Shown here: positions 24,187-44,897 of the stretch, piece after piece
Position numbering within the stretch: the stretch's first letter is position 1
How the letters are laid out: each line of letters opens with the position of its first letter
Assembly (NCBI GenBank): GCA_947303735.1
Contig: CAMYZD010000002.1
Coordinates: 1-58,196, forward strand
Direction of reading: 5' to 3'
Length of the DNA stretch: 58,196 nt
Source of the DNA: an uncultured Bacteroidales bacterium
GTDB lineage: Bacteria > Bacteroidota > Bacteroidia > Bacteroidales > P3
Notes under the pieces: generated by a model
Seen by the model: the letters and a program-made list of their open reading frames with translations, nothing else
Told to the model about the DNA's origin: nothing
The model's database searches: none
Program-made: the position numbers and the translations under genes

Positions 24187-24780
24187 ATGACTAACGAAGC
24201 AGTTGGCACGCTCACCGATAACGAGCTGATACAAGGTTATATGAATGGTAACCCGAAGTGTTTTGATGTCCTCCTCTCACGATATCAAGCAAAAGTCTAC
24301 GGCTACATTTTCTCTGTAGTGAAAGACAAAGATGTGGCAGACGATATCTTTCAGGACACCTTCTTTAAGGTCGTTGCCACCCTCAATAATGGCGACTACA
24401 AGGATGAAAATAAATTCATCCATTGGGTCATGCGCATCGCCCACAACCTGATTGTCGATTATTTCCGTCGTAACAACAAGATGCCCCTTGTCCCCAACCG
24501 TCCCGATTGTGACGTAGTGGACACGCTAAAACTCCACGATGACAACGTTGAGCAGAGCATCATGCGCCAGCAGACCAGCCGCAATGTGCGCAAACTCGTC
24601 AAGATGCTTCCTCCCGAGCAGCGCCGAGTGGTTATTCTCCGTCATTACGGCAAGTGCGACTTCAAAGACATTGCCGCCCGTACTGGTGTCAGCATAAACA
24701 CCGCTCTGGGTCGAATGCGCTACGCAATCATCAACCTTCGCCGTCTCGCAGAAGAACACAACATGTACTCGGAGCTCTGA
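24187..24780 (+). CDS. RNA polymerase sigma-70 factor, ECF type
   Basis: DIFQDTFFKVVATLNNG, WVMRIAHNLIVDYFRR, LPPEQRRVVILRHYGKCDFKDIAARTGVSINTALGRMRYAIINLRR. Confidence 0.92.
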   Translation: MTNEAVGTLTDNELIQGYMNGNPKCFDVLLSRYQAKVYGYIFSVVKDKDVADDIFQDTFFKVVATLNNGDYKDENKFIHWVMRIAHNLIVDYFRRNNKMPLVPNRPDCDVVDTLKLHDDNVEQSIMRQQTSRNVRKLVKMLPPEQRRVVILRHYGKCDFKDIAARTGVSINTALGRMRYAIINLRRLAEEHNMYSEL

Positions 24781-25164: not shown

Positions 25165-25174
25165 TTAAAAAAAG

Positions 25175-25210
25175 AAGCCTCGGTCCGTAGAACCGAGGCT
25201 TTCTTATTTT
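25175..25210 (+). terminator. Rho-independent terminator
   Basis: AAGCCTCGGT-CCGTAGA-ACCGAGGCTT followed by TCTTATTTT. Confidence 0.85.
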
Positions 25211-25312: not shown

Positions 25313-25657
25313 TCGGAACAAATACTTATCTGTCATAAACCCTAACGACTGATTTGGGTTAAAGACCAGACAAAGTTGAACAAGGGTGTGGTATGACAAA
25401 GGGAAGCTGAATCTTACGGGGTAGAATAAGAACTATATCGTTTTTTTCTACTTGATAAAACTCTAACGCACAATTCCCATGAGCATTTTTTTGTAGTTAT
25501 TCATCATCCTTTTTTTTTAACAAAAAGTACAATAAAAAAATAGAAGCAATAGATTTAAACAATGATTCAGACAATTATTATTTTTTTTATAATATTGGTT
25601 TCCTTATATTTGGAATGAACTTTATCCGAAAAGGCATCATATATCAAAAAAAATGCG

Positions 25658-25665
25658 TATATTTG
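25658..25665 (+). promoter_or_regulatory. Candidate -7 box TATATTTG for the accessory gene train
   Basis: Matches TAnnTTTG; about 400 nt upstream of the first gene at 26061. Confidence 0.5.
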
Positions 25666-26060
25666 CACTTTGAAATCGACGCGAGTTGTCGTGCGATGCG
25701 AAGAAGCATTTGCTATTGGTCCACTTTCTAAATTTCGCCAAAATTTATTCCAAGGACTTCAATACTGGTGCCTTTTGCTTTTGTTTATGTGTTGGTCATT
25801 CGCCACTGCATAGGGAAGCATAGGATAAGGTTCAAATTAGTTTTATTTGGAAAAGACGTTTGGCAATGCCTAGAAAGTATAGGACTAAAGCAACACGAGT
25901 TCTATGCTTTTTTAGTGCTGTATAACCGCCTCTGATGGGGAACTCAAGGAGGCGCAAAGAAAGAAAAAAGAATGATAATGGGTGATAGATTTGAACATAA
26001 GTAACATTCTATATACACAGAAATAGTAACCCATCTCTGTGAATTAAAAATTGACTAAAA

Positions 26061-26675
26061 ATGAAAAAAGAATTTTTAACCGCTAAACAAAAAAACTTAA
26101 TAGTGTCTTTTGCTACAATTGCAACCGCCACTATGATGTGTGCATTCAGCATAGCAGGTAAGGTTGAACCCAAAGACCCTCCGAAGGACAAGAAACCCGT
26201 GGTGGCTTTTGCGCACCTCAATCCCCAGCCGGACAGTGTGACAGTATCAATCCTGGGCGAAGATGTGGCAGCAATCGTTTTCGGTGCCAAGAAAGCTACA
26301 CTGAGTCATCTTAACCCCATGGACCCCCCTGCTGATGGCGAGGTCACAATCGGTGGTGTGAAAGTTGTGAGTAACCTCGGTACACTGAACAAAACGGATT
26401 TGATAACGATTCAATTCCTAATGGCGGATAGTGCATTCTACAACCAGGGAGCTATTACGGTGACTTCCCCATATGCTCCTAGTCATGCCATATCCTTTTT
26501 TAAAGGAAAGAATAGAACTGATTTACTTTTTTCGCTTCAAAGTAGTGAGATAGGTATTGTTGAAAATGGCAAGTTGATTAAAGTTGTCCGCTATCACAAT
26601 GCGCGTCAAATAACCCGTTTTTTTCGTCTTGTTTCTCAAAATGAATTTTACGATAAAATAATCGAAAACCAATAA
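26061..26675 (+). CDS. Hypothetical exported protein, first gene of the caspase/tubulin locus
   Basis: 204 aa; N-terminal hydrophobic segment IVSFATIATATMMCAFSIAGKV; no family recognised. Confidence 0.7.
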   Translation: MKKEFLTAKQKNLIVSFATIATATMMCAFSIAGKVEPKDPPKDKKPVVAFAHLNPQPDSVTVSILGEDVAAIVFGAKKATLSHLNPMDPPADGEVTIGGVKVVSNLGTLNKTDLITIQFLMADSAFYNQGAITVTSPYAPSHAISFFKGKNRTDLLFSLQSSEIGIVENGKLIKVVRYHNARQITRFFRLVSQNEFYDKIIENQ

Positions 26676-26685
26676 TAATCCTGTC

Positions 26686-27846
26686 ATGAAACGAATTGTT
26701 CTTATTATTTCTACTATGCTGATATCATTGTGCGCTTTCGGGCAAAAAAGGCCGACAATGCATGCAATTATTTTTGCTGACACCTATGATGACAAAATTG
26801 GTCCAGGAGCAGATATTAGCAAAACAAAATTTGGTGATTTGCTTTATGCAATTGCCGCAAGTATTGACTATGATGACGACTTTGAATATTATACTGGTGA
26901 TGCTTGTCGTAAGGCAACATTAATGAACGTTCTGGACAATTTTCATTGCGATACAGCAGACGTTGTTGTATTTTGTTATTTAGGACACGGTGTAAGGGCG
27001 CTCGATGACACGTCAATGTTTCCTCAAATGTGCCTGCATGAGAAAAATCAGAAGGACTTTGTTCCTTTAGATTATGTAAGAAACCGATTAGCAGTTCATG
27101 GGGCTCGTGTCACATGGGTTATTGGAGATTGCTGTAATTCCTATAACGAATATGTACGACCGAAGAACCCTGAGGTTGCAGGAGCGACAATGTTGCCTGG
27201 TGCATCAACAAATCTTATCAATCAATTGTTCGTCAAATTTACAGGGGTGATAACAATGTGTGCATCAAAACCAGGAACTTTTGGATGGTGCAATAGCATT
27301 ACAGGAATGTACTTTAACAATGAACTTATTCGAGCCATAGAATCCCCCAGCATCAACAATCTCATACCAAATCGGCCATGGTCGTCAGTGATGAATATGG
27401 TTATGAAAAGTTTGGCAGGACAAACTTTCTATGACAAGAATGATGTTCAGAGAACCCCATATAAAATGGAGCCGCGCTATAGAATTGAACCAAGAAACCC
27501 AATGAAGAATCCTAAAAAACATGAACCAGATGATGGCGAAATAGTAAAAGAACCAACTCTCCAAAATGAACTCAGTGCTATTTCTAATAGCAAGAAACAT
27601 GGCATAGAACGCATGCGGCTTATCACAAAAATACAAGAATCGTATTTTGCTTCCGACGCAATAGTTCGTACCGTGAGTCAAGAAAATGTAGCATACGGTA
27701 CGCCATATACCATTGAAGAATATCTAAATCATTTAGCGCATTCAAAGAACATCGTAAATGTAGTTGTCCGCAATATTAAGCGAGATGCATCAAACAAGGT
27801 TAATTATATGGAGATCCATGAATTTTATTCTGAACTGAAAAAATAA
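26686..27846 (+). CDS. Exported caspase-family (C14-like) peptidase
   Basis: Signal peptide MKRIVLIISTMLISLCAFGQ. Candidate His in ADVVVFCYLGHGVRA and candidate Cys in VTWVIGDCCNSYNE, with the usual beta-strand context of caspase p20. Confidence 0.82.
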   Translation: MKRIVLIISTMLISLCAFGQKRPTMHAIIFADTYDDKIGPGADISKTKFGDLLYAIAASIDYDDDFEYYTGDACRKATLMNVLDNFHCDTADVVVFCYLGHGVRALDDTSMFPQMCLHEKNQKDFVPLDYVRNRLAVHGARVTWVIGDCCNSYNEYVRPKNPEVAGATMLPGASTNLINQLFVKFTGVITMCASKPGTFGWCNSITGMYFNNELIRAIESPSINNLIPNRPWSSVMNMVMKSLAGQTFYDKNDVQRTPYKMEPRYRIEPRNPMKNPKKHEPDDGEIVKEPTLQNELSAISNSKKHGIERMRLITKIQESYFASDAIVRTVSQENVAYGTPYTIEEYLNHLAHSKNIVNVVVRNIKRDASNKVNYMEIHEFYSELKK

Positions 27847-27855
27847 TAAAAAGCC

Positions 27856-28701
27856 ATGAGAAAATTTGTATTATGCGTAATAACGCTGTTTACTTTCAAT
27901 TGCTTACATGCACAACAGCAAACTAATCTCCGCCCAGCCACAGGTATTGATAGTGCCTTCTGTTATTTTGATTCAGACGGCGCACACTTACGAGCAGAGC
28001 TCAGCATAGAAGAAGTCAAAATAATTGAAGCTACCGCAATACGAATAGTAGAAGAGTTTAATTCTAATGTGGCGCAACTCTGGAAGCCATGGACACAGGA
28101 AGAGATGGAGAAGTATACTCCGAAAGAAAGGGAAGAATTCAAAAAGGGCATTGAGACGTCCACTTGGAAACTCTTCATTGCTGATGCAAAGGAGTACTAT
28201 ACCCATGAAACCTCTAACTACAAGGTCTATAAAAGTAATGGGGTTTACTATTACCAAGACCAGTATGGGAAGCCTAAACGTGCTTATAATCCACAAAAAG
28301 ATGATAATGGGGTATTGCGAGAAACGGTGGAAGAAGATATAAAACATCTTCCTGCCAGAATTGAGATTACGAGTAAATATAGGAAAACCAGCACCATGAG
28401 AGAAGTGAGAAAATATCTCAACAACATTAAAAACAACCATACATACTCAAAAGTTGTTTTCAATGCTGGAGGGATTACCGTCTCAAACAAATTACGAAGA
28501 GATGCTGAAGGCCGTTATGTTGGAACAATCTGTTATTATCAAGATTTTTCTGGGTATAGACCTGACGGTGGTTCGTATTCAGACAGAACACTTAGGTGTG
28601 TGACATACTATGTTTACATTACTGTTCAAGGAACACCTGATGGAGATATGATTGTATGGAACATTAAACTTGGCGATATTCGCGCAACTGCTACAGAGTA
28701 G
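27856..28701 (+). CDS. Hypothetical exported protein, paralogue 1
   Basis: Signal peptide MRKFVLCVITLFTFNCLHAQ; central block identical to the next gene. Confidence 0.8.
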   Translation: MRKFVLCVITLFTFNCLHAQQQTNLRPATGIDSAFCYFDSDGAHLRAELSIEEVKIIEATAIRIVEEFNSNVAQLWKPWTQEEMEKYTPKEREEFKKGIETSTWKLFIADAKEYYTHETSNYKVYKSNGVYYYQDQYGKPKRAYNPQKDDNGVLRETVEEDIKHLPARIEITSKYRKTSTMREVRKYLNNIKNNHTYSKVVFNAGGITVSNKLRRDAEGRYVGTICYYQDFSGYRPDGGSYSDRTLRCVTYYVYITVQGTPDGDMIVWNIKLGDIRATATE

Positions 28702-29348
28702 TTGTCTTTCACAATAATTAACCACAATAACAATCATGAGATTATTACTTACATTCTCTGTCTTCTTGAGTTGTTGCTTGTCACTCCATGCTCAAACAGT
28801 AGAATCCCCCACTCCCCGAAGGATAGAAGATAATTATGCATACATTGATTCTTCTGGTTTTCACTTTAAAGGAGAGTTGTCTCATGATGAAGTAAAAATA
28901 ATTGAAGCTGCCGCAATACGAATAGTAGAAGAGTTTAATTCTAATGTGGCGCAACTCTGGAAGCCATGGACACAGGAAGAGATGGAGAAGTATACTCCGA
29001 AAGAAAGGGAAGAATTCAAAAAGGGCATTGAGACGTCCACTTGGAAACTCTTCATTGCTGATGCAAAGGAGTACTATACCCATGAAACCTCTAACTACAA
29101 GGTCTATAAAAGTAATGGGGTTTACTATTACCAAGACCAGTATGGGAAGCCTAAACGTGCTTATAATCCACAAAAAGATGATAATGGGGTATTGCGAGAA
29201 ACGGTGGAAGAAGATATAAAACATCTTCCTGCCAGAATTGAGATTACGAGTAAATATAGGAAAACCAGCACCATGAGAGAAGTGAGAAAATATCTCAACA
29301 ACATTAAAAACAACCATACATACTCAAAAGTTGTTTTCAATGCTGGAG
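28034..29348. repeat. Direct repeat: 438-nt blocks 28034-28471 and 28911-29348, offset 877
   Basis: Identical base for base by direct reading; bracketed by differing bases at 28033/28910 and 28472/29349. Confidence 0.95.
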
Positions 29349-29593
29349 AAGTTTTTTTCCCAAGCAAACTTAGACGTGATAGTGAAGGTAGATACGTCAG
29401 TACTCTATGTTATTATCAAGACTTTACTGGGTATTATCCAGATGGAAGTTTCTTCACGGATAGTTCTTATCATTGTATTACTTTTTATGCTTGGCCTATT
29501 GTGTTAGAAACCACATCAGAAGGAGATGCAATGGTTATTTGGCAAATAAAGCTCGGTGATATCCGAGCAACACAAGATGTAAATAATGAATAG
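28736..29593 (+). CDS. Hypothetical exported protein, paralogue 2
   Basis: Signal peptide MRLLLTFSVFLSCCLSLHAQ; tandem paralogue of 27856-28701. Confidence 0.8.
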   Translation: MRLLLTFSVFLSCCLSLHAQTVESPTPRRIEDNYAYIDSSGFHFKGELSHDEVKIIEAAAIRIVEEFNSNVAQLWKPWTQEEMEKYTPKEREEFKKGIETSTWKLFIADAKEYYTHETSNYKVYKSNGVYYYQDQYGKPKRAYNPQKDDNGVLRETVEEDIKHLPARIEITSKYRKTSTMREVRKYLNNIKNNHTYSKVVFNAGEVFFPSKLRRDSEGRYVSTLCYYQDFTGYYPDGSFFTDSSYHCITFYAWPIVLETTSEGDAMVIWQIKLGDIRATQDVNNE

Positions 29594-30356
29594 TTCCAAG
29601 ATTAGAAAGATATACATTGGAATGCTGGTACTTCTAATGGTACCAACAACAACCAGAAGTCAGGCTTTGCCATTTGTGTTACCAGACTTCTATGTTAATC
29701 GGATTATAACCATAGATCATTTTATGCAGCGTTTTAATCGAGAAGACATCCCTATATTTCTTGATTCTGCAGATGCAGAGCTGCCATACAAACAGGTTAT
29801 TACTTGTTTTTGTATAGATTCTGTCCGACACCGAGGAGAGGAGGTGATGGAATTTTCCCGTAAAATGGTTGATGAAAATGTTAGATTAGACTATGCAATG
29901 CCGAATTATTATTGTGAGTTAGAATGTTCTGCGAAATATAGGAAAGAAAGTACAACAATAATTATACGAATGGTTGTAGAAAAAAGCCCACAAGACTTTT
30001 ATTCCTGGGTAATTGCAGATGCAGAAGGCGAGGTCCTTACGGTTGCGCCAAATAGGACTTCATCAAAAATGAAGCTTTCTCCAGCTGATAATGAACGCTA
30101 TTTTCTTGATTTACGAGATGTTTTAAATGGACATCCGAATGACATAGCAAACTATACTTTTTCGGGATGGACAGTGGATCAAACATCCACTTTTATGGCA
30201 CTCGTTGCCAACAAATTGTTGATAATTGAATCTATCAAAAACATGAGATATGTATTTGATGCTGGAGGATATACCTTCAAAGTCCAATGTATAGATAGAG
30301 AAACTAATAATAATGGATGGCTGATCTATGATTTTGCAAAAAATGAACAAGAATAA
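29586..30356 (+). CDS. Hypothetical exported protein, possibly a divergent third relative of the preceding pair
   Basis: Signal peptide MNSSKIRKIYIGMLVLLMVPTTTRSQ; contains SAKYRKESTT and NMRYVFDAGGYTFKV, echoing TSKYRKTSTM and SKVVFNAGG. ATG overlaps the upstream stop. Confidence 0.7.
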   Translation: MNSSKIRKIYIGMLVLLMVPTTTRSQALPFVLPDFYVNRIITIDHFMQRFNREDIPIFLDSADAELPYKQVITCFCIDSVRHRGEEVMEFSRKMVDENVRLDYAMPNYYCELECSAKYRKESTTIIIRMVVEKSPQDFYSWVIADAEGEVLTVAPNRTSSKMKLSPADNERYFLDLRDVLNGHPNDIANYTFSGWTVDQTSTFMALVANKLLIIESIKNMRYVFDAGGYTFKVQCIDRETNNNGWLIYDFAKNEQE

Positions 30357-31407
30357 CAAATTATTACTATTTTTGACATTGACTATTTTCCTGTCAACAA
30401 GGACTTTCGCCCAAGGGCAATTCAGTCCAGGAAAAGCCACTCAATGTGTTGAAAGGGCATATTTAGAACTAAATCTATATGCGGGAATCATATCAAAATA
30501 TGACGGATCTTCCATTGAAATAAATACAATTAAAGAAGGTTTGTTAGAATGCTTTGACAAGGATTGTATTGTTGAAATGGATATTTATCGTTTAATCGGA
30601 CAGAAAGAGAATACATCTCAACAGCAACCAATAGAATATTATTTACATAAACTTGAGGAGATAGCAAAAGATAGAGAAGTGCATTTCGTAATGATAGGGA
30701 AGCCTATGGTTCTATATAATCAAGAAATAATTGCTACAATTAAAGTTACTTCTACCAGTAATTCGTATTGTTGTAAGGCAAAGGTTGGTCTAAATGAAGA
30801 GTATAAAGTCCGTTATATGAAATTCGTTGAATACGAAGAGGCCAATAATATCCGCCCTAAAACAGAGATAAAATATGTGTATATAGACAGGTCTGTGGAT
30901 AAATCAGAATATTGCCAAGCGGGGAAAAACAGATATGTGGCATGGGGAATAGTTGGAATAGGTTATCCTTTGAGTCTTTCAACAAACCTCGAGGGAAGAA
31001 TTGGCAAAGATATCGGAGTTGGTCTATATGGAGAGATTGGGGCCAGCTGGACACTAATAGATTATAGCTGGCAGAGGGAGAATACCTCAAATAGATACTT
31101 TAGCTATGCTTATGGTATCAAGTTTTACCCTTTCAGAGGACTATATATAGATTGTGGTTATGGTACAATTGCTAAATCCTATGTGGATTTAAGAGATGTG
31201 AAAATGGGTCAGTCTGAAGCAGAAAGACTTGTGGACAATGGCCTAGGCGTACTTTTCCATGTGGGTTATAATTTTGTTGGAGATCTCGAAGATTATAAAT
31301 CCAATTATTATATTGGTGTCAGTACTGGTATGTCGTATGACGTTAAAAACAATGTATTTGCACCATCAATGGGCATTCGGTTTGGGATTGCATGGGGAAC
31401 GAAGTGA
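30343..31407 (+). CDS. Exported protein with a barrel-like C-terminal half, paralogue 1
   Basis: Signal peptide MNKNNKLLLFLTLTIFLSTRTFAQ; C-terminal alternating aromatic/glycine strands (YGIKFYPFRGLYIDCGYGTI, LFHVGYNFVG). Confidence 0.7.
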   Translation: MNKNNKLLLFLTLTIFLSTRTFAQGQFSPGKATQCVERAYLELNLYAGIISKYDGSSIEINTIKEGLLECFDKDCIVEMDIYRLIGQKENTSQQQPIEYYLHKLEEIAKDREVHFVMIGKPMVLYNQEIIATIKVTSTSNSYCCKAKVGLNEEYKVRYMKFVEYEEANNIRPKTEIKYVYIDRSVDKSEYCQAGKNRYVAWGIVGIGYPLSLSTNLEGRIGKDIGVGLYGEIGASWTLIDYSWQRENTSNRYFSYAYGIKFYPFRGLYIDCGYGTIAKSYVDLRDVKMGQSEAERLVDNGLGVLFHVGYNFVGDLEDYKSNYYIGVSTGMSYDVKNNVFAPSMGIRFGIAWGTK

Positions 31408-31463
31408 TTAAAATAATGCACAAATCATCTTTTAGAGAATACGGATTCATGTTTTTTTATCAA

Positions 31464-32561
31464 ATGTACAAGAGTAATACACATAAGATTATACTATTGC
31501 TGACATTGATTATGTTAATGCCACACAATGGGTATTCGCAAAACAAATTAGGTGGTAAAGCACAACAGCACGTTGTACATACATATTCTATGCTTAATTC
31601 GTATGCGGGGATTGTAAAAAAGAATGGAGGATATTCCATAGAAATCGACTACCACAAACAAAAAGTATTGGAATGTTTTATAGCAGACACTGAATGCCTA
31701 GTTCAAATGGACATTTACAAGTTGGTTAATAATAGAGATCCTTCAATGCAACAAACATTGAGATTTTATCTGCAGAAATTAGAAGAAATAGCTAAAGACA
31801 GAGAGGTATTTTTTTCTGTGGTTGGGAAACCATCGATTTTGAAAAATGAGATAATAGTAACAATTGAAGTTGTATCTACAGCGAACTCATACCGCTGCAA
31901 AGCAAAGGTCGGTATAAACGGCAGTCTAAAAATCTGTTACATTAGATTTTCTGATTTTGAAAATATTCCCAACATAGAAATTATTAAACCACCTAAAGAA
32001 CCTGCTATACACCAAACAATGCTCAATTTTTCGGCAGGTGTGAAACTCACCAATGGTACCAATCTAGGGTTTGGCATTGGTGGGTTATCGAATAATTGGT
32101 TTCTAAACCGCATGAAATTTGGAATCGAATATGAATTATTGTTCGGTCAAAAGTACCCCCATTATCCGACAGCTTCTGGTAGTATGCCTTCAACATTGAC
32201 TTATGCAGCAAAGAAGAATGGTGATTTCGGATTGGGAATAAATATTGGATATATGTTTTTCCCAGGTAAATACGATAGCTATGACATAAGAGACTGGAAT
32301 TATAACAACGACCGTGGACTCTCATTTTTCATTGGAATTGGTGGGGTGTTTTATGATTTTTGGGATGAAAAGACCGGACCTTTGAAGTCGGATTATACGA
32401 GCCATTATAACTCAGCATTGTATATAAAACCGTCCTTACGTTGGGACATTGGTAATATTGGACTGGAGACTGGTTACTACATTTGTCCACAATATAATCC
32501 TATTCGAGGGTTTTGTTTTCAGATGACACTCAACATACAATTAAAAACAGCTAAAAAATGA
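31464..32561 (+). CDS. Exported protein with a barrel-like C-terminal half, paralogue 2
   Basis: Signal peptide MYKSNTHKIILLLTLIMLMPHNGYSQ; shares FYLQKLEEIAKDREVFFSVVGKP with the preceding gene. ORF extends to 31392. Confidence 0.7.
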   Translation: MYKSNTHKIILLLTLIMLMPHNGYSQNKLGGKAQQHVVHTYSMLNSYAGIVKKNGGYSIEIDYHKQKVLECFIADTECLVQMDIYKLVNNRDPSMQQTLRFYLQKLEEIAKDREVFFSVVGKPSILKNEIIVTIEVVSTANSYRCKAKVGINGSLKICYIRFSDFENIPNIEIIKPPKEPAIHQTMLNFSAGVKLTNGTNLGFGIGGLSNNWFLNRMKFGIEYELLFGQKYPHYPTASGSMPSTLTYAAKKNGDFGLGINIGYMFFPGKYDSYDIRDWNYNNDRGLSFFIGIGGVFYDFWDEKTGPLKSDYTSHYNSALYIKPSLRWDIGNIGLETGYYICPQYNPIRGFCFQMTLNIQLKTAKK

Positions 32562-32914
32562 AAAGATATATTCTCGCTTCTATTCTAGTACTTACGCTTG
32601 CCCTTCTAACATCATGTGGCAAAACAATATTCTATTCAGGAGAAATGATTCTTGACGGCACAACGGTACGCTACCTTGTAGATGTAGCCGACCAATCTAT
32701 GAAGGTCACAGCAGAAGGTACTACCCCAGATTCACCCATAACTGTAAGACTATTGATGATTAGCACAGCTGATCAATCCGGAATTTGGTACTACCGTGAT
32801 TTTATTGACACGGTGCCATATGAACACAAGTGGTCTCTTGATAATAATTGTGAGTATAGCCTATGGCTTATAAAAAATGGAGAAGAAATAAGTTTTGGCC
32901 AGTTTAATCTATAA
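32558..32914 (+). CDS. Small lipoprotein
   Basis: Lipobox LLTSCGK; ATGA overlap with the upstream stop. Confidence 0.75.
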   Translation: MKRYILASILVLTLALLTSCGKTIFYSGEMILDGTTVRYLVDVADQSMKVTAEGTTPDSPITVRLLMISTADQSGIWYYRDFIDTVPYEHKWSLDNNCEYSLWLIKNGEEISFGQFNL

Positions 32915-32929
32915 AATGGAAACAATAAA

Positions 32930-33973
32930 ATGAGATACTTTAAAATAGTCATTTTTATACTACTGATAGGAATAGTCGGTTGCGAACCCGATTTCCCAGA
33001 TAATACTATAACGATTCCAGATGGAACTTATTTTCTGATACCAGACACGATGGACACGATAACTCTCGGTAATAACAGATGTGTGACAATCCATGGTAAG
33101 GACAGTTGTTTTGTAGAAATCCTTGATAACCTCACCCGTTCTATTATGTATGCTACAGGTGACAGATATTTTGATGGAGTTACAACATACCTGCTACTAT
33201 ATCCACAAGCTGTCGGTAAGGCACATTGCAGGCTATATAACAATAGATTGAATTTTGACACTATAATTGAGATTTCGGTAATTGAAGCACACCCTGCTGA
33301 TACAGACTATACAGTATACACCTTTTATCCATCAGACAGGAACTTCCCTCTTACACAAAGAGAAGCCAGAATTAGTGTAACAGGACCGAAGATTATGGGT
33401 AGTAAGATTACGGACCAATTCATCCTCTCAGGATCGAGCGGGAATCGAAGTAGCGGAAACAAGTGTATCTCGTATATTGACCTTCGTTTTAACTATGTTG
33501 GTACAGCATTTGTAAAATTCTACAATGAGGAGTTTGATACATTGATTCGGGTAGACATCCTCCCGACGTATACGACTTATGAGGAACCTCCGCTAGATTT
33601 TGATGACACACGGGATTCTATAGTCGCAAAATTAGGAGTGCCACAAGAAGAAAGTTCCGAAGAACAATATTTGAGTTATAGCTATAATGGATCATTATAT
33701 GAATATACCCTTCGAGTAAACATGCTATCTTCAGGTGTAATAAAAGATTATGAGGTGTCTTTTACCGACGATGAGGCTAAGGAGGAATTAAAATTATTTA
33801 TTGAGGAACGATATAAAAAGATGAACAACACATGGAATGGCTATTATATCTACGCCCGTGCTTACGACACAACTTATCCAAACATTTATGATAGTGAAAC
33901 CAAGGTGCTGGTTGAAAACTTCTTGCAAGGAAAGATTGTCTATAAGAATCCAGAAAATCATTCAAATTGGTAA
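32930..33973 (+). CDS. Lipoprotein, FDDT-motif family member 1
   Basis: Lipobox IVGCEPDF; EEPPLDFDDTRDSI followed by a conserved C-terminal domain. Confidence 0.78.
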   Translation: MRYFKIVIFILLIGIVGCEPDFPDNTITIPDGTYFLIPDTMDTITLGNNRCVTIHGKDSCFVEILDNLTRSIMYATGDRYFDGVTTYLLLYPQAVGKAHCRLYNNRLNFDTIIEISVIEAHPADTDYTVYTFYPSDRNFPLTQREARISVTGPKIMGSKITDQFILSGSSGNRSSGNKCISYIDLRFNYVGTAFVKFYNEEFDTLIRVDILPTYTTYEEPPLDFDDTRDSIVAKLGVPQEESSEEQYLSYSYNGSLYEYTLRVNMLSSGVIKDYEVSFTDDEAKEELKLFIEERYKKMNNTWNGYYIYARAYDTTYPNIYDSETKVLVENFLQGKIVYKNPENHSNW

Positions 33974-33977
33974 TAAT

Positions 33978-34799
33978 ATGAAACACTTTGTGAATAGCCT
34001 AATCGTATGTCTAGGAGGATGTATACTATTTATGATGTTCTCCTGTGAAGTAGAAGCTACTGCATCAGCAAATGTTGTTGTTGAAGGCTCTAATCCAACG
34101 CCATTACCACATCAAATAAACCGGTGGTTGTCTACAGATTGGATTGGCGATGAAATTACTATGTTTATTACAGATAACCCTAAAGATATTCAATTCTTAT
34201 GCATCTCGGGTAAGCTAATCTCTATCGAGATGAATGATTGTTTTGTTTCCAAATATTATACATCATATTCATCAAGTATTTCTAGTTCTTTCTACAGAAT
34301 CGATGGCAGAATAACCCCGCTACACGTTGGAAAAACATACCTCCATATTCAAGATTCATTATTTGATACTCTTATCAGTGTAAAAATATTGGCTGAATTT
34401 TACACCTATACAGAGCCTCAGATAGATTTTGATGATACTGAGGATTCTGTTAATACCAAATTGCATGAACTCTTTGGTCACTGTACATACTATTCTGACA
34501 GTCATTATTACCAAATAGGAGACTCTCGTTGCCGATACAATCTATACGTCAACTACTCAGAGGATGGCGTAGTGGACAATTATATCGTAGAGTTGTATCA
34601 AGGAGTGGAATCAGCCGAACTTACAGGATACATTAATGAACGTTATTACAAGACAACAGCATCTGTGGGTGGTTTACCTGTGTATATCAAAGCTCATAAT
34701 AATGAATACCCTAGCATCTCTGATGCCACTGTGGTGGTAATACCTGACCTGACGGCTCACAAGGTGAAATATCAGAATCCGCTGACATATAGCAACTAA
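33978..34799 (+). CDS. Lipoprotein, FDDT-motif family member 2
   Basis: Start MKHFVNSLIVCLGGCILFMMFSCEVE; TEPQIDFDDTEDSVNTKL. The ORF-track start at 33837 overlaps the upstream gene. Confidence 0.78.
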   Translation: MKHFVNSLIVCLGGCILFMMFSCEVEATASANVVVEGSNPTPLPHQINRWLSTDWIGDEITMFITDNPKDIQFLCISGKLISIEMNDCFVSKYYTSYSSSISSSFYRIDGRITPLHVGKTYLHIQDSLFDTLISVKILAEFYTYTEPQIDFDDTEDSVNTKLHELFGHCTYYSDSHYYQIGDSRCRYNLYVNYSEDGVVDNYIVELYQGVESAELTGYINERYYKTTASVGGLPVYIKAHNNEYPSISDATVVVIPDLTAHKVKYQNPLTYSN

Positions 34800-34903
34800 C
34801 TAACACTCCGTACAATAAATAATTTTGGAAAAACAAAACAAGCAAAGAAAAGTTGTGGACAATAACCTAAAACTCATTCAAACTAGTAAATTAAGAAATA
34901 AAA

Positions 34904-35722
34904 ATGAAGAAAATATTGTTAAGCATTGCTAATATCATGTTAATTTCTGTCTTCAGTGGTTGTGAAATTGATATTGACCATAGTAACACCATCTATAGCA
35001 TCAATGGTTGGGATGGTAGAACTCCATATGAACACACGTTGAATGAAGGCCTGTCAACCAATTATGAAGGTGAAGAAATAAACATGTTCATCACGGATTT
35101 AAGTGAGGCAATACAATTTAGAAGTATCGTCGGTGAAGAACCCGTAGTTGTGGAGCCTGATTGCTTTGTAAGTCCGAGTTATGTATATGGACCATCGGGA
35201 TTTGACGAATCATTTGCTTTTTCGGTCTCTCTGCGTCCAAAGCATGTAGGGCGTACATTCATACGTGTATATAATTCAAAGTATGATGTAAAGATTCCAA
35301 TCAATATTCTTCCTGAATATCACATATTTACAGAACCACAGATAGATTTTGATGATACCGAGGATTCTGTTAATACAAAACTGCATAAACTCTTTGGCAA
35401 CCTTACATACTATTCCAACAGTCATTATTACCAAATAGGAGACTCTCGCTGCCGATACAATCTATACGTCAACTACTCAGAGGATGGCGTAGTGGACAAT
35501 TATATCGTAGAGTTGTATCAAGGAGTGGAATCAGACGAACTTACAGGATACATTAATGAACGTTATTACAAGACAACTGCATCTGTGGGTGGTTTACCTG
35601 TGTATATTAAAGCTCATAATAATGAATACCCTAGCATCTCTGATGCCACTGTTATAGTAATGCTTGACATAACGGATCATAAAATTAAATATCAAAATCC
35701 ACTAACCTATAGTAATCAATAA
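34904..35722 (+). CDS. Lipoprotein, FDDT-motif family member 3
   Basis: Lipobox VFSGCEID; C-terminal domain nearly identical to member 2. Confidence 0.8.
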   Translation: MKKILLSIANIMLISVFSGCEIDIDHSNTIYSINGWDGRTPYEHTLNEGLSTNYEGEEINMFITDLSEAIQFRSIVGEEPVVVEPDCFVSPSYVYGPSGFDESFAFSVSLRPKHVGRTFIRVYNSKYDVKIPINILPEYHIFTEPQIDFDDTEDSVNTKLHKLFGNLTYYSNSHYYQIGDSRCRYNLYVNYSEDGVVDNYIVELYQGVESDELTGYINERYYKTTASVGGLPVYIKAHNNEYPSISDATVIVMLDITDHKIKYQNPLTYSNQ

Positions 35723-35735
35723 AAATCTGTTCAAT

Positions 35736-38700
35736 ATGTCCAACCATCTTATTATTGGCCTCGGTGGCACAGGCGGGAAAGTGCTGCGCGAATTCCGCAG
35801 AAGACTCTTTGAGGAATATGGCAAAAACGATCTTGAGAATCCCAAAGTAGGGGAATATTTTGAGTATGTTTACGTTGACTCCTCAACAAGTGATTTGAAC
35901 GAACGCTGGGAAGCCATGGCCACAAATATGTCGTTAGGCGATGCCCAAAAAGTGAACATTCATAGTGTTCCAATGGAGATGCTCAATGACCTCCAATCTT
36001 TTTCTGGATTAAACTCATTTGTTTCTTCACAGGATGTGGAAGACATGAAAGCCAAAATCGGGCAGGCAATCACGGCTGGCATTGGGGGACAACGGCGTCG
36101 CCTGGGTCGCATACTACTTGCCGCAAATTTGGCCAGTATTTCCGATCAGAAAAATTTTGAGCACACGATTCGTGCAGCTATTGGAAGACTGCATTCGAGA
36201 AGTGGACACGAAAACGTTACGTTCCATATATGTGCCGGACTAGCCGGTGGAACTGGGTCAGGAACTGTGATAGATGCTATCAGCCTACTCCGGAAGTGGT
36301 TTCCTTATGACACTGCCACCCACAACAATAAGATTCTATTATTACTTTATGTACCTGAGTCGACACTGGTTGATAACACACACGATGCTGGCTACTATCA
36401 AGCTAATGGATATGCCGCATTGCAGGAAATAAATGCACTAGCACTTGGTCAATATAAGCCATACGACATTACAGGCCAACGTACGCCTACGGGACAACAC
36501 GCCCGTATTACAGCAGGGTTTGAAGCTGCATATATCTACAGCAATACAACAGAAAATGGCAACAAGAAAGATTTACAGAAACGATTACCCTCAGACGTGG
36601 CTGAGTTTTTGTTTCAATCAATCAGCATGTCTGGTGGTCAGCTTCAAAGACTGAGTAATTGTGAAAATAATCCCCCCACGCCAGAAAATGATCAATCAGG
36701 TAACCCTGCCCACTGTTGTCAATTCATGACATTCGGTGTGACCCGTGTAGAATATCCAGAAATAGAGATCCGCCAATTTGCCACATATAGTTTCGCATTG
36801 CAAGCTGTTCGGGGGTTGCTTTACAACTATTGGATTAATGGACAGGGCTATGATGTGCGTGCCAACAACCAAGTTGGACTTACGTATAGTTCGACAGTGA
36901 GAGAGCCTGGGACTTTACAGAGATTGAAACTGACTGATGACTATTTAATGCTCAGTCAAGCCATATCCAATGAGGGAGCCGATACTTGGCAAAGCATCAA
37001 AAGCACATGGGGCAAATACTCAGAAAGTGCAATAAAGTCTATTGAGAAATATCCCCAAAAAGAAAGCTGGCCCAATAGACTATCCACGATGATGAGAGAA
37101 TTTTATGAAAACAAATTCCGCAGCATGGGTGTGGAGAAGTTTTTTGGGGTGCAGAATGCCAACCTTGATGCCTATGCTTCACTAGTCTGCAAACATATAG
37201 AACATGAATTGTTCCAAGAGTGGCTAACTGGCACTAAGAGTATTGTTGAGGTAGCAAAGTATGTTGAAGAACTCATTGCATCAAGCCAGGAAAGAATTGG
37301 AGAATATGATACAAGTATCGCTAATGAACTATCAGAAGGAGAGAAAAATGGTGCTGCCGCTGCTATAACAAACACTAAATACAATAATGTCGGATTTGTG
37401 GGGAAGGCGGTGTTTGCCAAATTAGAAAAACTGATTCACCAATACAAGGATGAGTTGGAGCAACAATACCGACACGAAACAATGGCACAGGCAACACAAT
37501 ATGCAAAAGAATTGTTGATGCATATTGTAAGCAAATTATCAACCCTACAGAACACTCTGAGAGATGTTAACGACCTGTTCGTTGGCATTGCGAAAAAAGC
37601 AGAGACCGAAATGGCAAATCGCTGTTCTGCCAATAGTCCTCAAGATGGAATATTCAGATGCTACAATCCTGCTGACGTTCGTCAAATCATCAAACAGTTT
37701 GAAATCAACAGAAAATACCAAGATCAATCACTTGCTGCCATTCGAGATGAAATTGTATCGATGATTGGAAACGATGGTCATGAGACCTTTAGCTTATTGA
37801 AAGACAAAGTTGACACACAGAGTGCCGTGAGTATAATTTTGAAAAATTGTGAACAAGTGGCTGTTTCTGTAATGGGTGAGTATGGGAACACAAACCCATC
37901 GGCAAAACTCATTGATGTAAATATCCTTGAAAAACTACGCACCTCGTTTACTAAACAGGAAGACTTAGACAACTTCGTCAAAGAAGTACTTTCTAATGCC
38001 GAATGCAATTTCCAGTTTGACGCCACACAGTCTGCCACGGTCACAGCACCTATGCCACACATGATTCAATTAAGAATTCCAAACGCTGTTGGAGAAGCTG
38101 ACCAACAATTCCGCAATGATGTGATTGCGGAGTTTGCCAGACAGTTCGCTGGATTCAATGTTGCTAACGACGTGGCTTTATGCGACAAGAGCAATCGAAT
38201 TGTGATAGTAAGTGCATGGAGCAATATGCCTCTGCGTGTAATGAAGAATACATCAATTCTAAAAGAAAAGTACGATGCCTTAGTATCAACAAACAATCAA
38301 GATTACGCCTTTCATCGTATGCTTCTGCACACTGAGAATTTTCTTCCCAATGCCTTGCCTCAGTTATTTAACCCCACGCCTTACGAAGTTAAGCAGATGG
38401 CATTTGAGCCCCTTCTTTTGGCTTTTGCACTGAACTTGCTCCCACAGCAGCTTGATCCAATGTTAGGTCAAAATGTATATACGTTGACCGAAACAACTAT
38501 AGCAGGAATTATACCGCACGCACTAGGGCCTGATTTTGCTGCCAGTTGGAAGACCTTATCAGGAAGTCATAAACTCACCATCATGTTGATAGAACAAGTA
38601 AATCAAACGATGGCTCAAGCAGCCGTGACAGTACCTCAGAAAAATGAAATCGCTAATCGAATAAAGGATGTACTACAGCAACATGTCCTTACTAGCTTGT

Positions 38701-38780
38701 GCGAGAACAAGCCATTACACCCAGATTGGATGGTGTATAACCAAGAAGCAACAAAGATAATTACAAACAGATTAAGCTGA
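35736..38780 (+). CDS. Tubulin-like (FtsZ/tubulin superfamily, Tubulin_2-type) GTPase, 1014 aa
   Basis: N-terminal HLIIGLGGTGGKVLREFRRRL and tubulin signature CAGLAGGTGSGTVIDAISLL, followed by a long mostly helical C-terminal region. Confidence 0.85.
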   Translation: MSNHLIIGLGGTGGKVLREFRRRLFEEYGKNDLENPKVGEYFEYVYVDSSTSDLNERWEAMATNMSLGDAQKVNIHSVPMEMLNDLQSFSGLNSFVSSQDVEDMKAKIGQAITAGIGGQRRRLGRILLAANLASISDQKNFEHTIRAAIGRLHSRSGHENVTFHICAGLAGGTGSGTVIDAISLLRKWFPYDTATHNNKILLLLYVPESTLVDNTHDAGYYQANGYAALQEINALALGQYKPYDITGQRTPTGQHARITAGFEAAYIYSNTTENGNKKDLQKRLPSDVAEFLFQSISMSGGQLQRLSNCENNPPTPENDQSGNPAHCCQFMTFGVTRVEYPEIEIRQFATYSFALQAVRGLLYNYWINGQGYDVRANNQVGLTYSSTVREPGTLQRLKLTDDYLMLSQAISNEGADTWQSIKSTWGKYSESAIKSIEKYPQKESWPNRLSTMMREFYENKFRSMGVEKFFGVQNANLDAYASLVCKHIEHELFQEWLTGTKSIVEVAKYVEELIASSQERIGEYDTSIANELSEGEKNGAAAAITNTKYNNVGFVGKAVFAKLEKLIHQYKDELEQQYRHETMAQATQYAKELLMHIVSKLSTLQNTLRDVNDLFVGIAKKAETEMANRCSANSPQDGIFRCYNPADVRQIIKQFEINRKYQDQSLAAIRDEIVSMIGNDGHETFSLLKDKVDTQSAVSIILKNCEQVAVSVMGEYGNTNPSAKLIDVNILEKLRTSFTKQEDLDNFVKEVLSNAECNFQFDATQSATVTAPMPHMIQLRIPNAVGEADQQFRNDVIAEFARQFAGFNVANDVALCDKSNRIVIVSAWSNMPLRVMKNTSILKEKYDALVSTNNQDYAFHRMLLHTENFLPNALPQLFNPTPYEVKQMAFEPLLLAFALNLLPQQLDPMLGQNVYTLTETTIAGIIPHALGPDFAASWKTLSGSHKLTIMLIEQVNQTMAQAAVTVPQKNEIANRIKDVLQQHVLTSLCENKPLHPDWMVYNQEATKIITNRLS

Positions 38781-38784
38781 GACC

Positions 38785-39555
38785 ATGAAATCAAATAAAC
38801 CCAAAACCAGAAAAGGGCATTGCACAAACTATACAAATTGCCCATTGGCTGATAATGGAGATGTTCAAGAAATTCCCATTGGAGATGACTTTATTTGCAA
38901 CCTATGCAAATCTGAATTAGAAGAGGAGCCTCCTAAGCCAAAGAAAATTTGGTTATGGATGCTTGTTGCAATTGTCATGATTGTTGTTGCAGTATTACTA
39001 GTCCGTCAGTGTAACAATATAGAACCTGAATCAATTGAAACGGACACTATTTTCAATCAATGTGGTGACACGGTATTCCTAAATGGTAAAGATACCATCA
39101 GAATTGGGCTTAATGCCAAAGTACAAATTGACACCTGTTTTAATGAATGTGGTGACACCTTATTTGTAAGATGCTCTGATACCATGATAAGAAAGACTAC
39201 TACAGTCTATACGGTTTTCAACAGACGAGGAGACACTATTATAAAGCGAGGATGCGACACATTGGAAATACGAGTATTTATCAAAAAGCCGACAATGCCG
39301 GACACTCACCATATTAATCCTCCTAAACCCATTCCTCAGATTACGTCAAAACCCGTATATGGGAATTATTATGGTCCGAGAAACACGTCAGGTGAGCCTC
39401 ATGGGAAGGGAGGTCGTGTTGAAGTGACAGTGGAATATCACTGGGGACATTACGTTTTTTCACCAGGAGATAGAATAGTAAACACCACTTACGAATATGG
39501 GCAACTACGACATGGTAAAGTTATTCGGAAAGATGGAAATACATACCAAATCTGA
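38785..39555 (+). CDS. Zinc-ribbon transmembrane protein with three internal repeats
   Basis: CTNYTNCPLADNG...FICNLCKSEL, TM segment IWLWMLVAIVMIVVAVLLV, then three FNxxGDT repeats. Confidence 0.72.
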   Translation: MKSNKPKTRKGHCTNYTNCPLADNGDVQEIPIGDDFICNLCKSELEEEPPKPKKIWLWMLVAIVMIVVAVLLVRQCNNIEPESIETDTIFNQCGDTVFLNGKDTIRIGLNAKVQIDTCFNECGDTLFVRCSDTMIRKTTTVYTVFNRRGDTIIKRGCDTLEIRVFIKKPTMPDTHHINPPKPIPQITSKPVYGNYYGPRNTSGEPHGKGGRVEVTVEYHWGHYVFSPGDRIVNTTYEYGQLRHGKVIRKDGNTYQI

Positions 39556-39653
39556 CAATAGTCTGATCTCTTGATATGACGAGATGCTACACGTCCTTTG
39601 GGATAAACGCTCGGTATTATTATTCGAAAGATTGATTAAATCTCAATACTAGA

Positions 39654-40253
39654 ATGAAACTCCCGATACCCTACCCTTACATTGCCTCTTGGGCAGATAC
39701 GAGGATTGTACCGTCACTTTTGCGCTATGAGCAATTGCCGACAGCCGAATTTTTTTATGGAAAGGCATACCCTATTCTAAAATCGCTCTATGATAGATAT
39801 ACTACGGATTGCACAGAGGTATTAGATTTCATTCATGAAATATATATCGACATTATGCGGCCACGTGCTATCAAAAAGCGTTGTAAACTAGAAACGTTCA
39901 ACTATAAGTGTGCTCTGCATAACTGGGTTGGGGTCGTGGCGATACGATATTGCTACGCCTGTTTTAAAAGACGGATTCCAACTGAAGAATTGTCTGATAG
40001 TGAAGGTTTCTCTACAGCAGAACCATCTATACTGACAAACATGGACAGGTTGAACCATGAAGACGTGGAGGCAATACTAAAGATGATGCCGAATGAAAGA
40101 TATAGGAAATTGATTCGCCTTCGCTATTTGGATGGTCTTGACAACGAAGAAACTGCAAGGGAGATGGGTATGAATATGGAAAACTACTACAATAAGCACC
40201 GATTGGCTAAAGTGCAATATGTACAGGTATACTTAAAGGAGATGTCAAGATGA
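39654..40253 (+). CDS. ECF-sigma-like protein
   Basis: MMPNERYRKLIRLRYLDGLDNEETAREMGMNMENYYNKHRLAKVQ resembles sigma region 4; N-terminal region-2-like. Confidence 0.7.
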   Translation: MKLPIPYPYIASWADTRIVPSLLRYEQLPTAEFFYGKAYPILKSLYDRYTTDCTEVLDFIHEIYIDIMRPRAIKKRCKLETFNYKCALHNWVGVVAIRYCYACFKRRIPTEELSDSEGFSTAEPSILTNMDRLNHEDVEAILKMMPNERYRKLIRLRYLDGLDNEETAREMGMNMENYYNKHRLAKVQYVQVYLKEMSR

Positions 40254-40723
40254 ATCAAATTGATGACAACACATTGACAGCCTATCTAGAGGGAAGTCTT
40301 TCGCCAAAAGACAGCTTAAAGGTAGAGAGAGCCATTGAAGAGGATGATGAACTAAAAGCTGTAGTAGATGGATGGCTTGATATGGTAGATGCAATGTGCG
40401 ATGAAATGCAACAGGAGGATGATAATACGTCACGAATGGAAGCATGTAAAAGTATAGGGAAAGTTATGGGGGGAATTAAGGAGGCCCCTAAAAGAAGAGT
40501 CATGCTTTTTAAGCCCGATGAGAATCATTTTAAAAAAATTCTCGTTGCAGCATCCCTTATTACATTTGTCAACCTTGCTATTGTATGGTTTCTGAATAAC
40601 ACAGATAACACCACTTCTTATGATGTACCAATGAATGTAGACTTTGACAAATGTCCAATAGATACAGATTCTGCTCCTGTTGATTCTGGATTATTTACAG
40701 AAGATTTATCATTGTACAAATAG
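40250..40723 (+). CDS. Anti-sigma-factor-like single-TM protein
   Basis: MNQIDDNTLTAYLEGSLSPKDSLKVERAIEEDDELKAVVDGW plus TM ILVAASLITFVNLAIVWFL. ATGA overlap with the sigma-like gene. Confidence 0.65.
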   Translation: MNQIDDNTLTAYLEGSLSPKDSLKVERAIEEDDELKAVVDGWLDMVDAMCDEMQQEDDNTSRMEACKSIGKVMGGIKEAPKRRVMLFKPDENHFKKILVAASLITFVNLAIVWFLNNTDNTTSYDVPMNVDFDKCPIDTDSAPVDSGLFTEDLSLYK

Positions 40724-44187: not shown

Positions 44188-44358
44188 ATGCCTATGGACA
44201 CTTCAATCATTCTGAGCAACTTGGGCTTGTATGCCAAACGAGTGGGGCGCACGGTGGCGCGGCCAGTGGTGATTTTGTACTCTTTCATCGAGATGCAGGT
44301 CGATGCACTGCTGGATAAATGGTTTCCCGACTATACGGCGACAGAGGAGGTGCTGTGA
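44188..44358 (+). CDS. 56-aa small protein, translationally coupled to the FtsZ-like gene
   Basis: MPMDTSIILSNLGLYAKRVGRTVARPVVILYSFIEMQVDALLDKWFPDYTATEEVL*; TGATG overlap with the next start. Confidence 0.65.
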   Translation: MPMDTSIILSNLGLYAKRVGRTVARPVVILYSFIEMQVDALLDKWFPDYTATEEVL

Positions 44359-44897
44359 TGGGAATTAAAGTAGTCGGCATAGGCGGATGCGGGTGCAATA
44401 TTGTTGATAACATCTGCCGCACGGACGTGCAGGATGTCGATTTTGCTCTTGTCAATAGGGATGAATTGTCCCCTTACTCATCTAATGCAGAAAGACTATG
44501 TGTCAACGCCGATGCAAAGGACTTGGACAAGGGTCTACAAATATTGCTAAACGGCATCCCCCATACCCTTATCGTTGTAGCCGGTATGGGAGGCAAATAT
44601 AGTGCAAAGGTGGCAGCGGAGCTCTGTCGCCTGCACCAGTCTATCACAAGGCAAAAAGCCCTGTCTATAGCTTTCGTTGTGCTGCCATTCAAGTTTGAAA
44701 CACGAGATCAAAAAGCCACAAAAGACCTTGATTTGATTTCGGAACAGGCTACGCGGGTCGTCACATTCGACAACAACAAACTTCTCCAATTCGAGAATCA
44801 ACCGATGGCTCAGGTCTTTCGCATAGTTGACCAAGAGGTGTGTAATCTCATAGAAGCCGAAAAACACTCATGCCCGCAAACAGAAATTCCATATTAA
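44358..44897 (+). CDS. Short FtsZ/tubulin-superfamily protein (GTPase-domain-only)
   Basis: MGIKVVGIGGCGCNIVDNI, then FALVNRDE and TLIVVAGMGGKYSAKVAAELC, in the order of the FtsZ N-terminal motifs. Confidence 0.72.
   Translation: MGIKVVGIGGCGCNIVDNICRTDVQDVDFALVNRDELSPYSSNAERLCVNADAKDLDKGLQILLNGIPHTLIVVAGMGGKYSAKVAAELCRLHQSITRQKALSIAFVVLPFKFETRDQKATKDLDLISEQATRVVTFDNNKLLQFENQPMAQVFRIVDQEVCNLIEAEKHSCPQTEIPY

What the first reader, a model, noticed from the sequence alone, without database searches (positions are those of the whole stretch)
26061..40723. Candidate undescribed envelope-spanning locus: exported caspase, lipoproteins, barrel-like proteins and a tubulin-like GTPase
Seen: about 14.6 kb, all on the + strand, with many junctions of 15 nt or less or overlapping. 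In order: exported hypothetical, exported caspase-like peptidase (LGHG, DCCNS), three exported proteins (at least two are paralogues), two exported barrel-like paralogues, four lipoproteins (three are paralogues), a 1014-aa tubulin-superfamily GTPase (GGTGSGT), a zinc-ribbon TM protein, a sigma-like protein and an anti-sigma-like protein. Established: caspase-fold peptidases and tubulin/FtsZ-like proteins outside cell division both recur in bacterial conflict or membrane-remodelling loci. Inference: one system in which a cytoplasmic filament-forming GTPase, a membrane linker and surface proteins act together, with the caspase as effector or processing enzyme. I know of no described system with this gene set.
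Basis: partly seen in the sequence, partly recalled or inferred. Interest (0 to 1): 0.9.

Follow-up and report, generated by a model that had tools for sequence, protein, structure and literature searches.

The report
Leader-RNA-controlled caspase–tubulin envelope operon
A gut/rumen bacterium carries an operon that joins two usually separate gene sets, an exported caspase-like protease set and a tubulin-like protein with its membrane linker, behind a folded leader RNA that is missing from Rfam and also precedes many other defence-like and envelope operons.

Summary
The gene list is real. The tubulin-like protein is not new: it is Pfam Tubulin_2, which I identify with the FtsZl1 family published in 2010. 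Caspase relatives occur in 27 other genomes searched, never with the tubulin on the same contig, and none of about 60 FtsZl1 loci has a caspase. The locus is a composite of two separately conserved Bacteroidales modules: (1) exported protein–caspase–two further exported proteins; (2) FtsZl1 plus a zinc-ribbon/transmembrane linker. One relative (L093) keeps the whole order but carries only a decayed tubulin remnant, so the pairing is older than this genome and the tubulin can be lost. It matches no Rfam family. It precedes 4 caspase modules and 4 FtsZl1 operons of this genus (one a weaker match), weakly one caspase module of another genus, and dozens of other operons (TerD, restriction–modification, kinase/FHA, GTPase, vWA, exported proteins). 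Its 59 close copies point at the next gene in 55 cases. Best reading: an RNA-attenuated, inducible envelope/conflict operon; its biochemical action is inferred.

The parts
25658..25666 (+). promoter -7 element TATATTTGC (Bacteroidetes TAnnTTTG type, from own knowledge)
   Evidence: conserved in nearly all copies directly upstream of the RNA (alignment A8)
25669..25915 (+). structured leader RNA: long irregular hairpin, 42 conserved pairs, ends in a U-run
   Evidence: covariance model match 233.9 bits; covariation 74 double-change cells vs 25 +/- 4 in shuffles, 0/500; no Rfam match
25897..25902 (+). GAGUUC strand just before the terminator-like end
   Evidence: near-invariant; complementary to the downstream GAACTC
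25940..25945 (+). GAACTC motif downstream of the U-run, possible antiterminator partner
   Evidence: exact in 42 of 57 copies vs 0.7 expected from shuffles
26061..26675 (+). W1: exported protein, first gene of the caspase module
   Evidence: homologues directly upstream of the caspase in L093-L096, L098, L100, L101, L130-L135
26686..27846 (+). exported caspase-like peptidase (His101, Cys150) with an extra C-terminal domain
   Evidence: PF00656; alignment A2
27856..28701 (+). W3: exported protein of the caspase module, copy 1
28736..29593 (+). W3 copy 2, core 99-100% identical to copy 1 at DNA level
29586..30356 (+). W4: exported protein of the caspase module
30328..31407 (+). W5: exported, possibly barrel-ended protein, copy 1
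   Evidence: weak OMP_b-brl match; weak profile similarity of N-terminus to a protein of other caspase modules
31392..32561 (+). W5 copy 2
   Evidence: 52% identity over 151 aa to copy 1
32558..32914 (+). small lipoprotein
   Evidence: lipobox TSC; homologue only in L093
32930..33973 (+). lipoprotein, paralogue 1
   Evidence: lipobox VGC
33978..34799 (+). lipoprotein, paralogue 2 (corrected start)
   Evidence: lipobox FSC
34904..35722 (+). lipoprotein, paralogue 3
   Evidence: lipobox SGC; 61% identical to paralogue 2
35736..38780 (+). FtsZl1 / Tubulin_2 GTPase-like protein, 1014 aa
   Evidence: PF13809 E 2e-52; invariant GLGGTGG and GGTGSG loops; fold
38785..39555 (+). zinc-ribbon / transmembrane linker with C-terminal MORN-like tip (f5 family)
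   Evidence: homologue follows FtsZl1 in most Bacteroidales operons; invariant C13, C19, C38, C41
39654..40253 (+). ECF sigma factor
   Evidence: TIGR02937 over cut-off; 72% identical in L093
40250..40723 (+). anti-sigma-like membrane protein
   Evidence: weak NF052375 match; overlaps the sigma gene; 45% identical in L093

Best explanation
The locus is a composite, inducible envelope operon. It joins a separately conserved exported-caspase module (W1-caspase-W3-W4 plus variable exported proteins) to a separately conserved FtsZl1-linker pair, behind a structured leader RNA that also precedes many other conflict-like and envelope operons. Most likely working: the leader RNA ends transcription early under normal growth; a stress or infection signal favours the alternative GAGUUC:GAACUC pairing and lets polymerase through. 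The FtsZl1 protein then assembles in the cytoplasm and is held at the inner membrane by the zinc-ribbon/transmembrane linker, whose periplasmic tip positions the exported proteins and lipoproteins. The caspase cuts an envelope target, with W1 as its likely partner or inhibitor, and the sigma/anti-sigma pair reports envelope state. Shown here: composite nature, remnant, export signals, RNA structure, leader position and orientation. Inferred: attenuation, assembly, recruitment, cleavage and the signal.
For: Two modules conserved apart: 51 related FtsZl1 loci in 3 phyla, most with the linker and exported proteins; the caspase module in 10 genomes of the family and 19 of 393 in the order, without a tubulin nearby. 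Syntenic L093 with 29-72% identical genes, the linker and sigma/anti-sigma kept, but only a tubulin remnant (score 21.9; best of 1000 shuffles -2.4, best of 268 control positions -1.5). Leader RNA: covariation; 55 of 59 copies have the first downstream ORF on the same strand, p = 1.7e-12, 54 within 500 nt. Among 82 known loci, E < 1e-9 hits lie only upstream of caspase or FtsZl1 operons, including L021 (72 bits) and, in another genus, L097 (42.6 bits). Downstream genes include FHA, kinase, PP2C, vWA, DO-GTPase1, dynamin, TerD, type I RM, trypsin and caspase domains.
Against: The leader also precedes plain exported-protein genes (BspA repeats, lipoproteins), more so outside the genus, so it need not mean conflict. 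No expression data. Both strands of the proposed antiterminator are nearly invariant, so there is almost no covariation to test it, and the simple stem test around GAACTC was negative. L093 keeps every other gene after losing the tubulin, so the tubulin may be a passenger (though that genome has another FtsZl1 elsewhere). Some class-B and caspase loci lack the leader.
Confidence: 0.6

Rival explanations
1. The caspase module is the working unit and the FtsZl1-linker pair is a passenger that joined and is now being lost; the two do not act together.
For: Caspase module intact without tubulin nearby in 27 other genomes. L093 keeps all other genes with a decayed tubulin. The window tubulin has a very long branch (1.83 against a median end branch of 0.063).
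Against: All GTP-binding residues and the long open frame are kept in the window; the linker survives in L093; both module types share the leader RNA.
Confidence: 0.25
2. It is a variant of the FtsZl1 membrane-remodelling machinery proposed in 2010, with the caspase module as its lineage-specific cargo: filaments reshape the inner membrane and the exported proteins act at the outer membrane.
For: FtsZl1 membership; the linker and exported proteins recur in the class-B operons of Bacteroidales.
Against: No vWA protein, P-loop GTPase, kinase or OmpA-domain protein, the partners that define the published system, was found in this locus; the 2010 paper itself doubts FtsZ-type filaments for this family.
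Confidence: 0.3
3. The leader RNA is a trans-acting or housekeeping small RNA (6S-like) that merely sits between operons; its place before these genes is not regulatory in cis.
For: Own promoter, 6S-like long hairpin with a small 3' hairpin, ends in a U-run; present in 98 of 120 genus genomes.
Against: Up to 11 copies per genome; orientation 55 of 59 toward the next gene, mostly 41-53 nt from it; conserved GAACTC beyond the U-run; no Rfam 6S match.
Confidence: 0.2

Closest known systems
FtsZl1 (FtsZ-like 1) family and its predicted membrane-remodelling operons, Makarova and Koonin 2010 (PMC2875224); I equate it with Pfam PF13809 Tubulin_2
   Same: Same size, N-terminal GTPase domain, central coiled coil and C-terminal domain; operon with membrane/exported proteins
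   Different: No vWA, P-loop GTPase, kinase or OmpA partner here; zinc-ribbon/TM/MORN-like linker and caspase module instead; very divergent (28-40% identical to the relatives aligned)
GTPase-centric and vWA 'NTP-dependent conflict systems' with tubulin and HSP70 (Kaur et al. 2020, PMC7159879)
   Same: Tubulins, peptidases and vWA proteins recur as parts; DO-GTPase, vWA and an HSP70-like gene occur in operons behind the same leader RNA
   Different: The window locus lacks the GTPase/GAP1, MoxR, vWA and HSP70 core; its proteins are mostly exported
Prokaryotic metacaspases/orthocaspases (Peptidase C14), surveyed in PMC3501461
   Same: His-Cys dyad, caspase fold family, sometimes with signal peptides and in operons with surface proteins
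   Different: Fixed exported module W1-caspase-W3-W4 with no Pfam match for the partners; not described in the papers searched
Cis-regulatory leader RNAs (attenuators, riboswitch-like)
   Same: Promoter, structured 5' leader, U-run, possible alternative pairing, set distance to the start codon
   Different: No Rfam match; one RNA shared by dozens of unrelated operons with no common metabolic theme

Membership tests
FtsZl1 / Tubulin_2 (PF13809) | N-terminal FtsZ/tubulin GTPase domain with GGTG(S/T)G loop | tested here: met
   PF13809 179 bits, cut-off 27; GGTGSG invariant; fold matches tubulin/CetZ
FtsZl1 / Tubulin_2 (PF13809) | about 1000 aa with central coiled coil and C-terminal domain | tested here: met
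   1014 aa; two helices of about 49 and 70 residues (503-551, 558-627) then a mixed domain
FtsZl1 membrane-remodelling operon (2010) | vWA protein and P-loop GTPase or kinase in the same operon | tested here: not met
   none among the 15 genes; an exported vWA-like protein adjoins other FtsZl1 genes of the genus
NTP-dependent conflict systems (Kaur 2020) | GTPase/GAP1 or MoxR-vWA core | tested here: not met
   no such domains in the locus
Known anti-phage defence system | match to PADLOC models | tested here: not met
   only a weak caspase match, E 0.002
Peptidase C14 (caspase) | His-Cys dyad in a caspase domain | tested here: met
   PF00656 in 10 of 10 members; H101 and C150 invariant
Peptidase C14 (caspase) | proteolytic activity | not testable with these tools
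   needs purified protein
ECF sigma / anti-sigma pair | sigma-70 family protein followed by a membrane anti-sigma | tested here: inconclusive
   sigma over cut-off; partner has one apparent TM helix but only E 0.0023 to an anti-sigma model
Structured RNA (any Rfam family) | match at gathering score | tested here: not met
Cis-regulatory leader RNA | covarying structure, same strand, just upstream of genes | tested here: met
Cis-regulatory leader RNA | changes downstream expression in cis | not testable with these tools
   needs reporter assays

The most novel reading that the evidence does not exclude
A previously uncatalogued leader RNA, spread through Bacteroidales, is a common attenuator switch for a dispersed set of conflict and envelope operons (caspase module, FtsZl1, TerD, restriction-modification, kinase/FHA, double-GTPase), and in this genome it drives a fused caspase-tubulin machine that acts across the envelope.
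Probability: 0.4. Interest if true: 0.88.

Novelty: new variant of a known kind. Interest (0 to 1): 0.7.

Why it matters
If one RNA fold gates many unrelated defence-like and surface operons, it gives a handle on how gut and rumen Bacteroidales turn such systems on, and a way to find further such operons by searching for the RNA instead of for known genes. It also gives the FtsZl1 proteins, unexplained since 2010, a testable partner set in Bacteroidales: a zinc-ribbon membrane linker and conserved exported proteins.

Tried and rejected
(1) One conserved caspase-tubulin system: rejected by neighbourhoods. (2) Homology of the caspase-module exported proteins (W1-W5) to the exported proteins of class-B FtsZl1 operons (f1-f3, f6-f9): first hits were signal peptides; after trimming nothing convincing was left. 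(3) Known defence system: PADLOC gave only a weak caspase match. (4) Phage origin: the caspase finds nothing in viral contigs. (5) Solved relatives of W1, W3, W4: none believable. (6) Empty-site comparison: the flanking sigma (24187) and permease (41199) genes are common in the genus, but the nearest permease match lies on a different contig from that genome's sigma match, so no clean empty site could be defined. (7) Invertible promoter: an imperfect inverted repeat flanks the promoter in many copies, but every copy aligned has the same orientation, so inversion was not pursued. (8) A conserved stem around the GAACTC motif: simple shuffle test negative.
Full report
WHAT IS THERE. Fifteen + strand ORFs run from 26061 to 40723, with overlaps or gaps of 15 nt or less at 11 of 14 junctions. 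Products, in order: an exported protein (W1), an exported caspase-like peptidase, two paralogous exported proteins (W3), a further exported protein (W4), two paralogous exported proteins with possible barrel ends (W5), four lipoproteins of which three are paralogues, a Tubulin_2 protein, a zinc-ribbon/transmembrane protein, an ECF sigma factor and an anti-sigma-like protein. Start correction: 33978 for the second paralogous lipoprotein. G+C of the locus is 38.5% against 51% and 49% in the flanks; the syntenic locus L093 shows the same contrast, 39.6% against 56%. The unit is therefore compositionally distinct in two genomes, which argues for acquisition and against misassembly. The genome is a 72.6% complete draft.

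THE TUBULIN-LIKE PROTEIN IS A KNOWN FAMILY. It matches PF13809 with 179 bits. [quoted passage not shown] Bacteroides caccae is among their species. That FtsZl1 equals PF13809 is my identification from family features. The AlphaFold model (mean pLDDT 87.7) shows this architecture, and its N-terminal part matches tubulin and CetZ. Nucleotide loops GLGGTGG and GGTGSG are invariant across 33 relatives. In a tree of 49 rows the window protein sits inside the Bacteroidales clade on a very long branch (1.83 against a median end branch of 0.063), while the second copy in the same genome (L003) has an ordinary branch of 0.046; its exact place is unsure.

TWO KINDS OF FtsZl1 LOCI. In the genus there are loci with an exported vWA-like protein next to FtsZl1 (L023, L026-L028 and others) and a second, window-like class. 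A collection scan found 51 related loci, mostly Bacteroidales, plus Thiotrichaceae and Akkermansiaceae. Their common order is: small membrane protein (f4), FtsZl1, zinc-ribbon/TM linker (f5), then exported proteins f2, f3, f1 and others. The window gene 38785-39555 belongs to the linker family, with four invariant cysteines, a TM segment and a C-terminal MORN-like tip. No caspase was found in these loci by motif or by profile.

THE CASPASE MODULE IS SEPARATE. Caspase relatives occur in 10 of 190 genomes of the family and in 19 of 393 of the order. Their neighbourhoods share the order W1, caspase, W3, W4, then variable exported proteins. Every member of the first ten hits PF00656, and His101 and Cys150 are invariant. 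A Tubulin_2 search of the 28 caspase-positive genomes found matches in 8, but only the window genome has both on one contig. Some of these genomes are fragmented drafts, so a distant neighbour could be missed.

A REMNANT SHOWS OLDER PAIRING. L093, from a second species of the genus, repeats the whole window order, including the linker, sigma and anti-sigma genes (with a single W5 and two of the three paralogous lipoproteins), but has only 167 nt where the 3-kb tubulin gene should be. These 167 nt align to the start and the end of the window's tubulin gene (score 21.9; best of 1000 shuffles -2.4; best of 268 control positions -1.5). So the tubulin stood in the ancestral locus and was lost by internal deletion and decay, while the other genes stayed open. 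That genome has another FtsZl1 operon elsewhere (L022), which might compensate.

A STRUCTURED LEADER RNA PRECEDES THE OPERON. Non-coding DNA upstream of the window operon and of L093 aligns over about 360 nt, better than most of the proteins. The same element occurs elsewhere in the genus. An alignment of 22 copies (A9) gives a long irregular hairpin of 42 pairs; 15 pairs show changes on both sides. Observed double-change cells are 74, against 25 +/- 4 in shuffles (0 of 500) and 4 to 38 in slid structures. Relatedness can inflate the shuffle control, but the slid controls keep relatedness. A TAnnTTTG-type promoter element is conserved just upstream and a U-run at the end. There is no Rfam match.

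WHERE THE RNA SITS. In 55 of 59 copies the first downstream ORF is on the same strand (p = 1.7e-12), 54 of them within 500 nt and most often 41-53 nt away. Copies stand before the caspase modules of window, L093, L095/L206 and L098/L209, and before the FtsZl1 operons L020/L179, L022/L198 and L217. With a covariance model (R1), a search of 82 already known loci returned hits with E below 1e-9 only upstream of caspase or FtsZl1 operons, including two not used to build the model: FtsZl1 operon L021 (72 bits) and caspase module L097 of another genus (42.6 bits). Other operons behind the RNA carry TerD, type I restriction-modification, kinase/FHA/PP2C, vWA, double-GTPase, dynamin, trypsin-like, M48 and BspA-repeat genes. 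The model finds 98 of 120 genus genomes, up to 11 copies each, and weaker full-length matches in 25 genera of the order, again mostly just before a same-strand gene, often for exported proteins and once an HSP70-like gene. E-values of the model are rough.

POSSIBLE SWITCH. Beyond the U-run, 42 of 57 copies have an exact GAACTC against 0.7 expected from shuffles; the RNA has a near-invariant GAGUUC just before the U-run. Pairing of the two would compete with the terminator-like end. The copy before the TerD operon (L192) has GAAUUC and GAGUUC, both changed and still pairable. Shared ancestry could also explain the motif, and a simple test for a stem around it was negative. Attenuation is therefore an inference.

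HOW IT MOST LIKELY WORKS. Shown: export signals, module structure, leader RNA and its position. Inferred: read-through on stress or infection; FtsZl1 assembly under the inner membrane; anchoring by the linker; exported proteins and lipoproteins positioned across the envelope; caspase cleavage of an envelope target with W1 as partner. The genes fit both a conflict role and an envelope-maintenance role; I lean to an inducible conflict/stress role because the same RNA precedes TerD, restriction-modification and GTPase systems, while noting its plain exported-protein targets.

NOVELTY. FtsZl1, bacterial caspases and leader RNAs are known kinds. New, as far as the papers and databases searched show, are the exported caspase module, the linker-type FtsZl1 operon, their fusion here and the leader RNA. 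The papers found are PMC2875224, PMC7159879, PMC3501461 and PMC8040213; the last lists thousands of uncurated RNA candidates whose supplement could not be checked, so the RNA may exist there under another name.

Noticed in passing
window 44319-44897 (+) with 44870-45901 (+): A second, short FtsZ-like GTPase-domain protein (192 aa, PF00091 47 bits) with an altered glycine loop (GMGGKYSA) overlaps a WYL-domain regulator; not part of the operon studied.
   Followed up: no
window 27856-28701 and 28736-29593; 33978-34799 and 34904-35722: Paralogous neighbours share 82-100% identical DNA blocks next to diverged ends; the L093 pair of W3 genes is also closer to each other than to the window pair, which suggests gene conversion or repeated duplication.
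   Followed up: partly
L034:7664-9988, L057:6764-9349, L063:1864-4467: Some Bacteroidales FtsZl1 operons carry a second, degenerate FtsZl1 copy in tandem (in L034 with a damaged nucleotide loop), a possible non-hydrolysing partner.
   Followed up: no
window 25630-25650 and about 25760-25775: An imperfect inverted repeat (GGCATnnGTAT / ATACnnATGCC) flanks the leader's promoter in many copies; could be a regulator site. All copies aligned have the same orientation.
   Followed up: partly
L130:4111-12728: In another Bacteroidales family the W1-caspase pair stands next to genes that look like protein kinases, PP2C phosphatase and FHA proteins, without W3/W4.
   Followed up: no
L183, L203, L210, L214, L215: Further operons behind the leader RNA look like another FtsZ-like type: exported, partly vWA-like protein, small protein, 460-540 aa protein (FtsZ-like in L183) and a 1000-1170 aa protein.
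   Followed up: partly
window 25174-25202: Strong bidirectional terminator hairpin separates the upstream ECF sigma gene (24187-24780, found in 54 of 59 genus genomes) from the leader and operon.
   Followed up: yes
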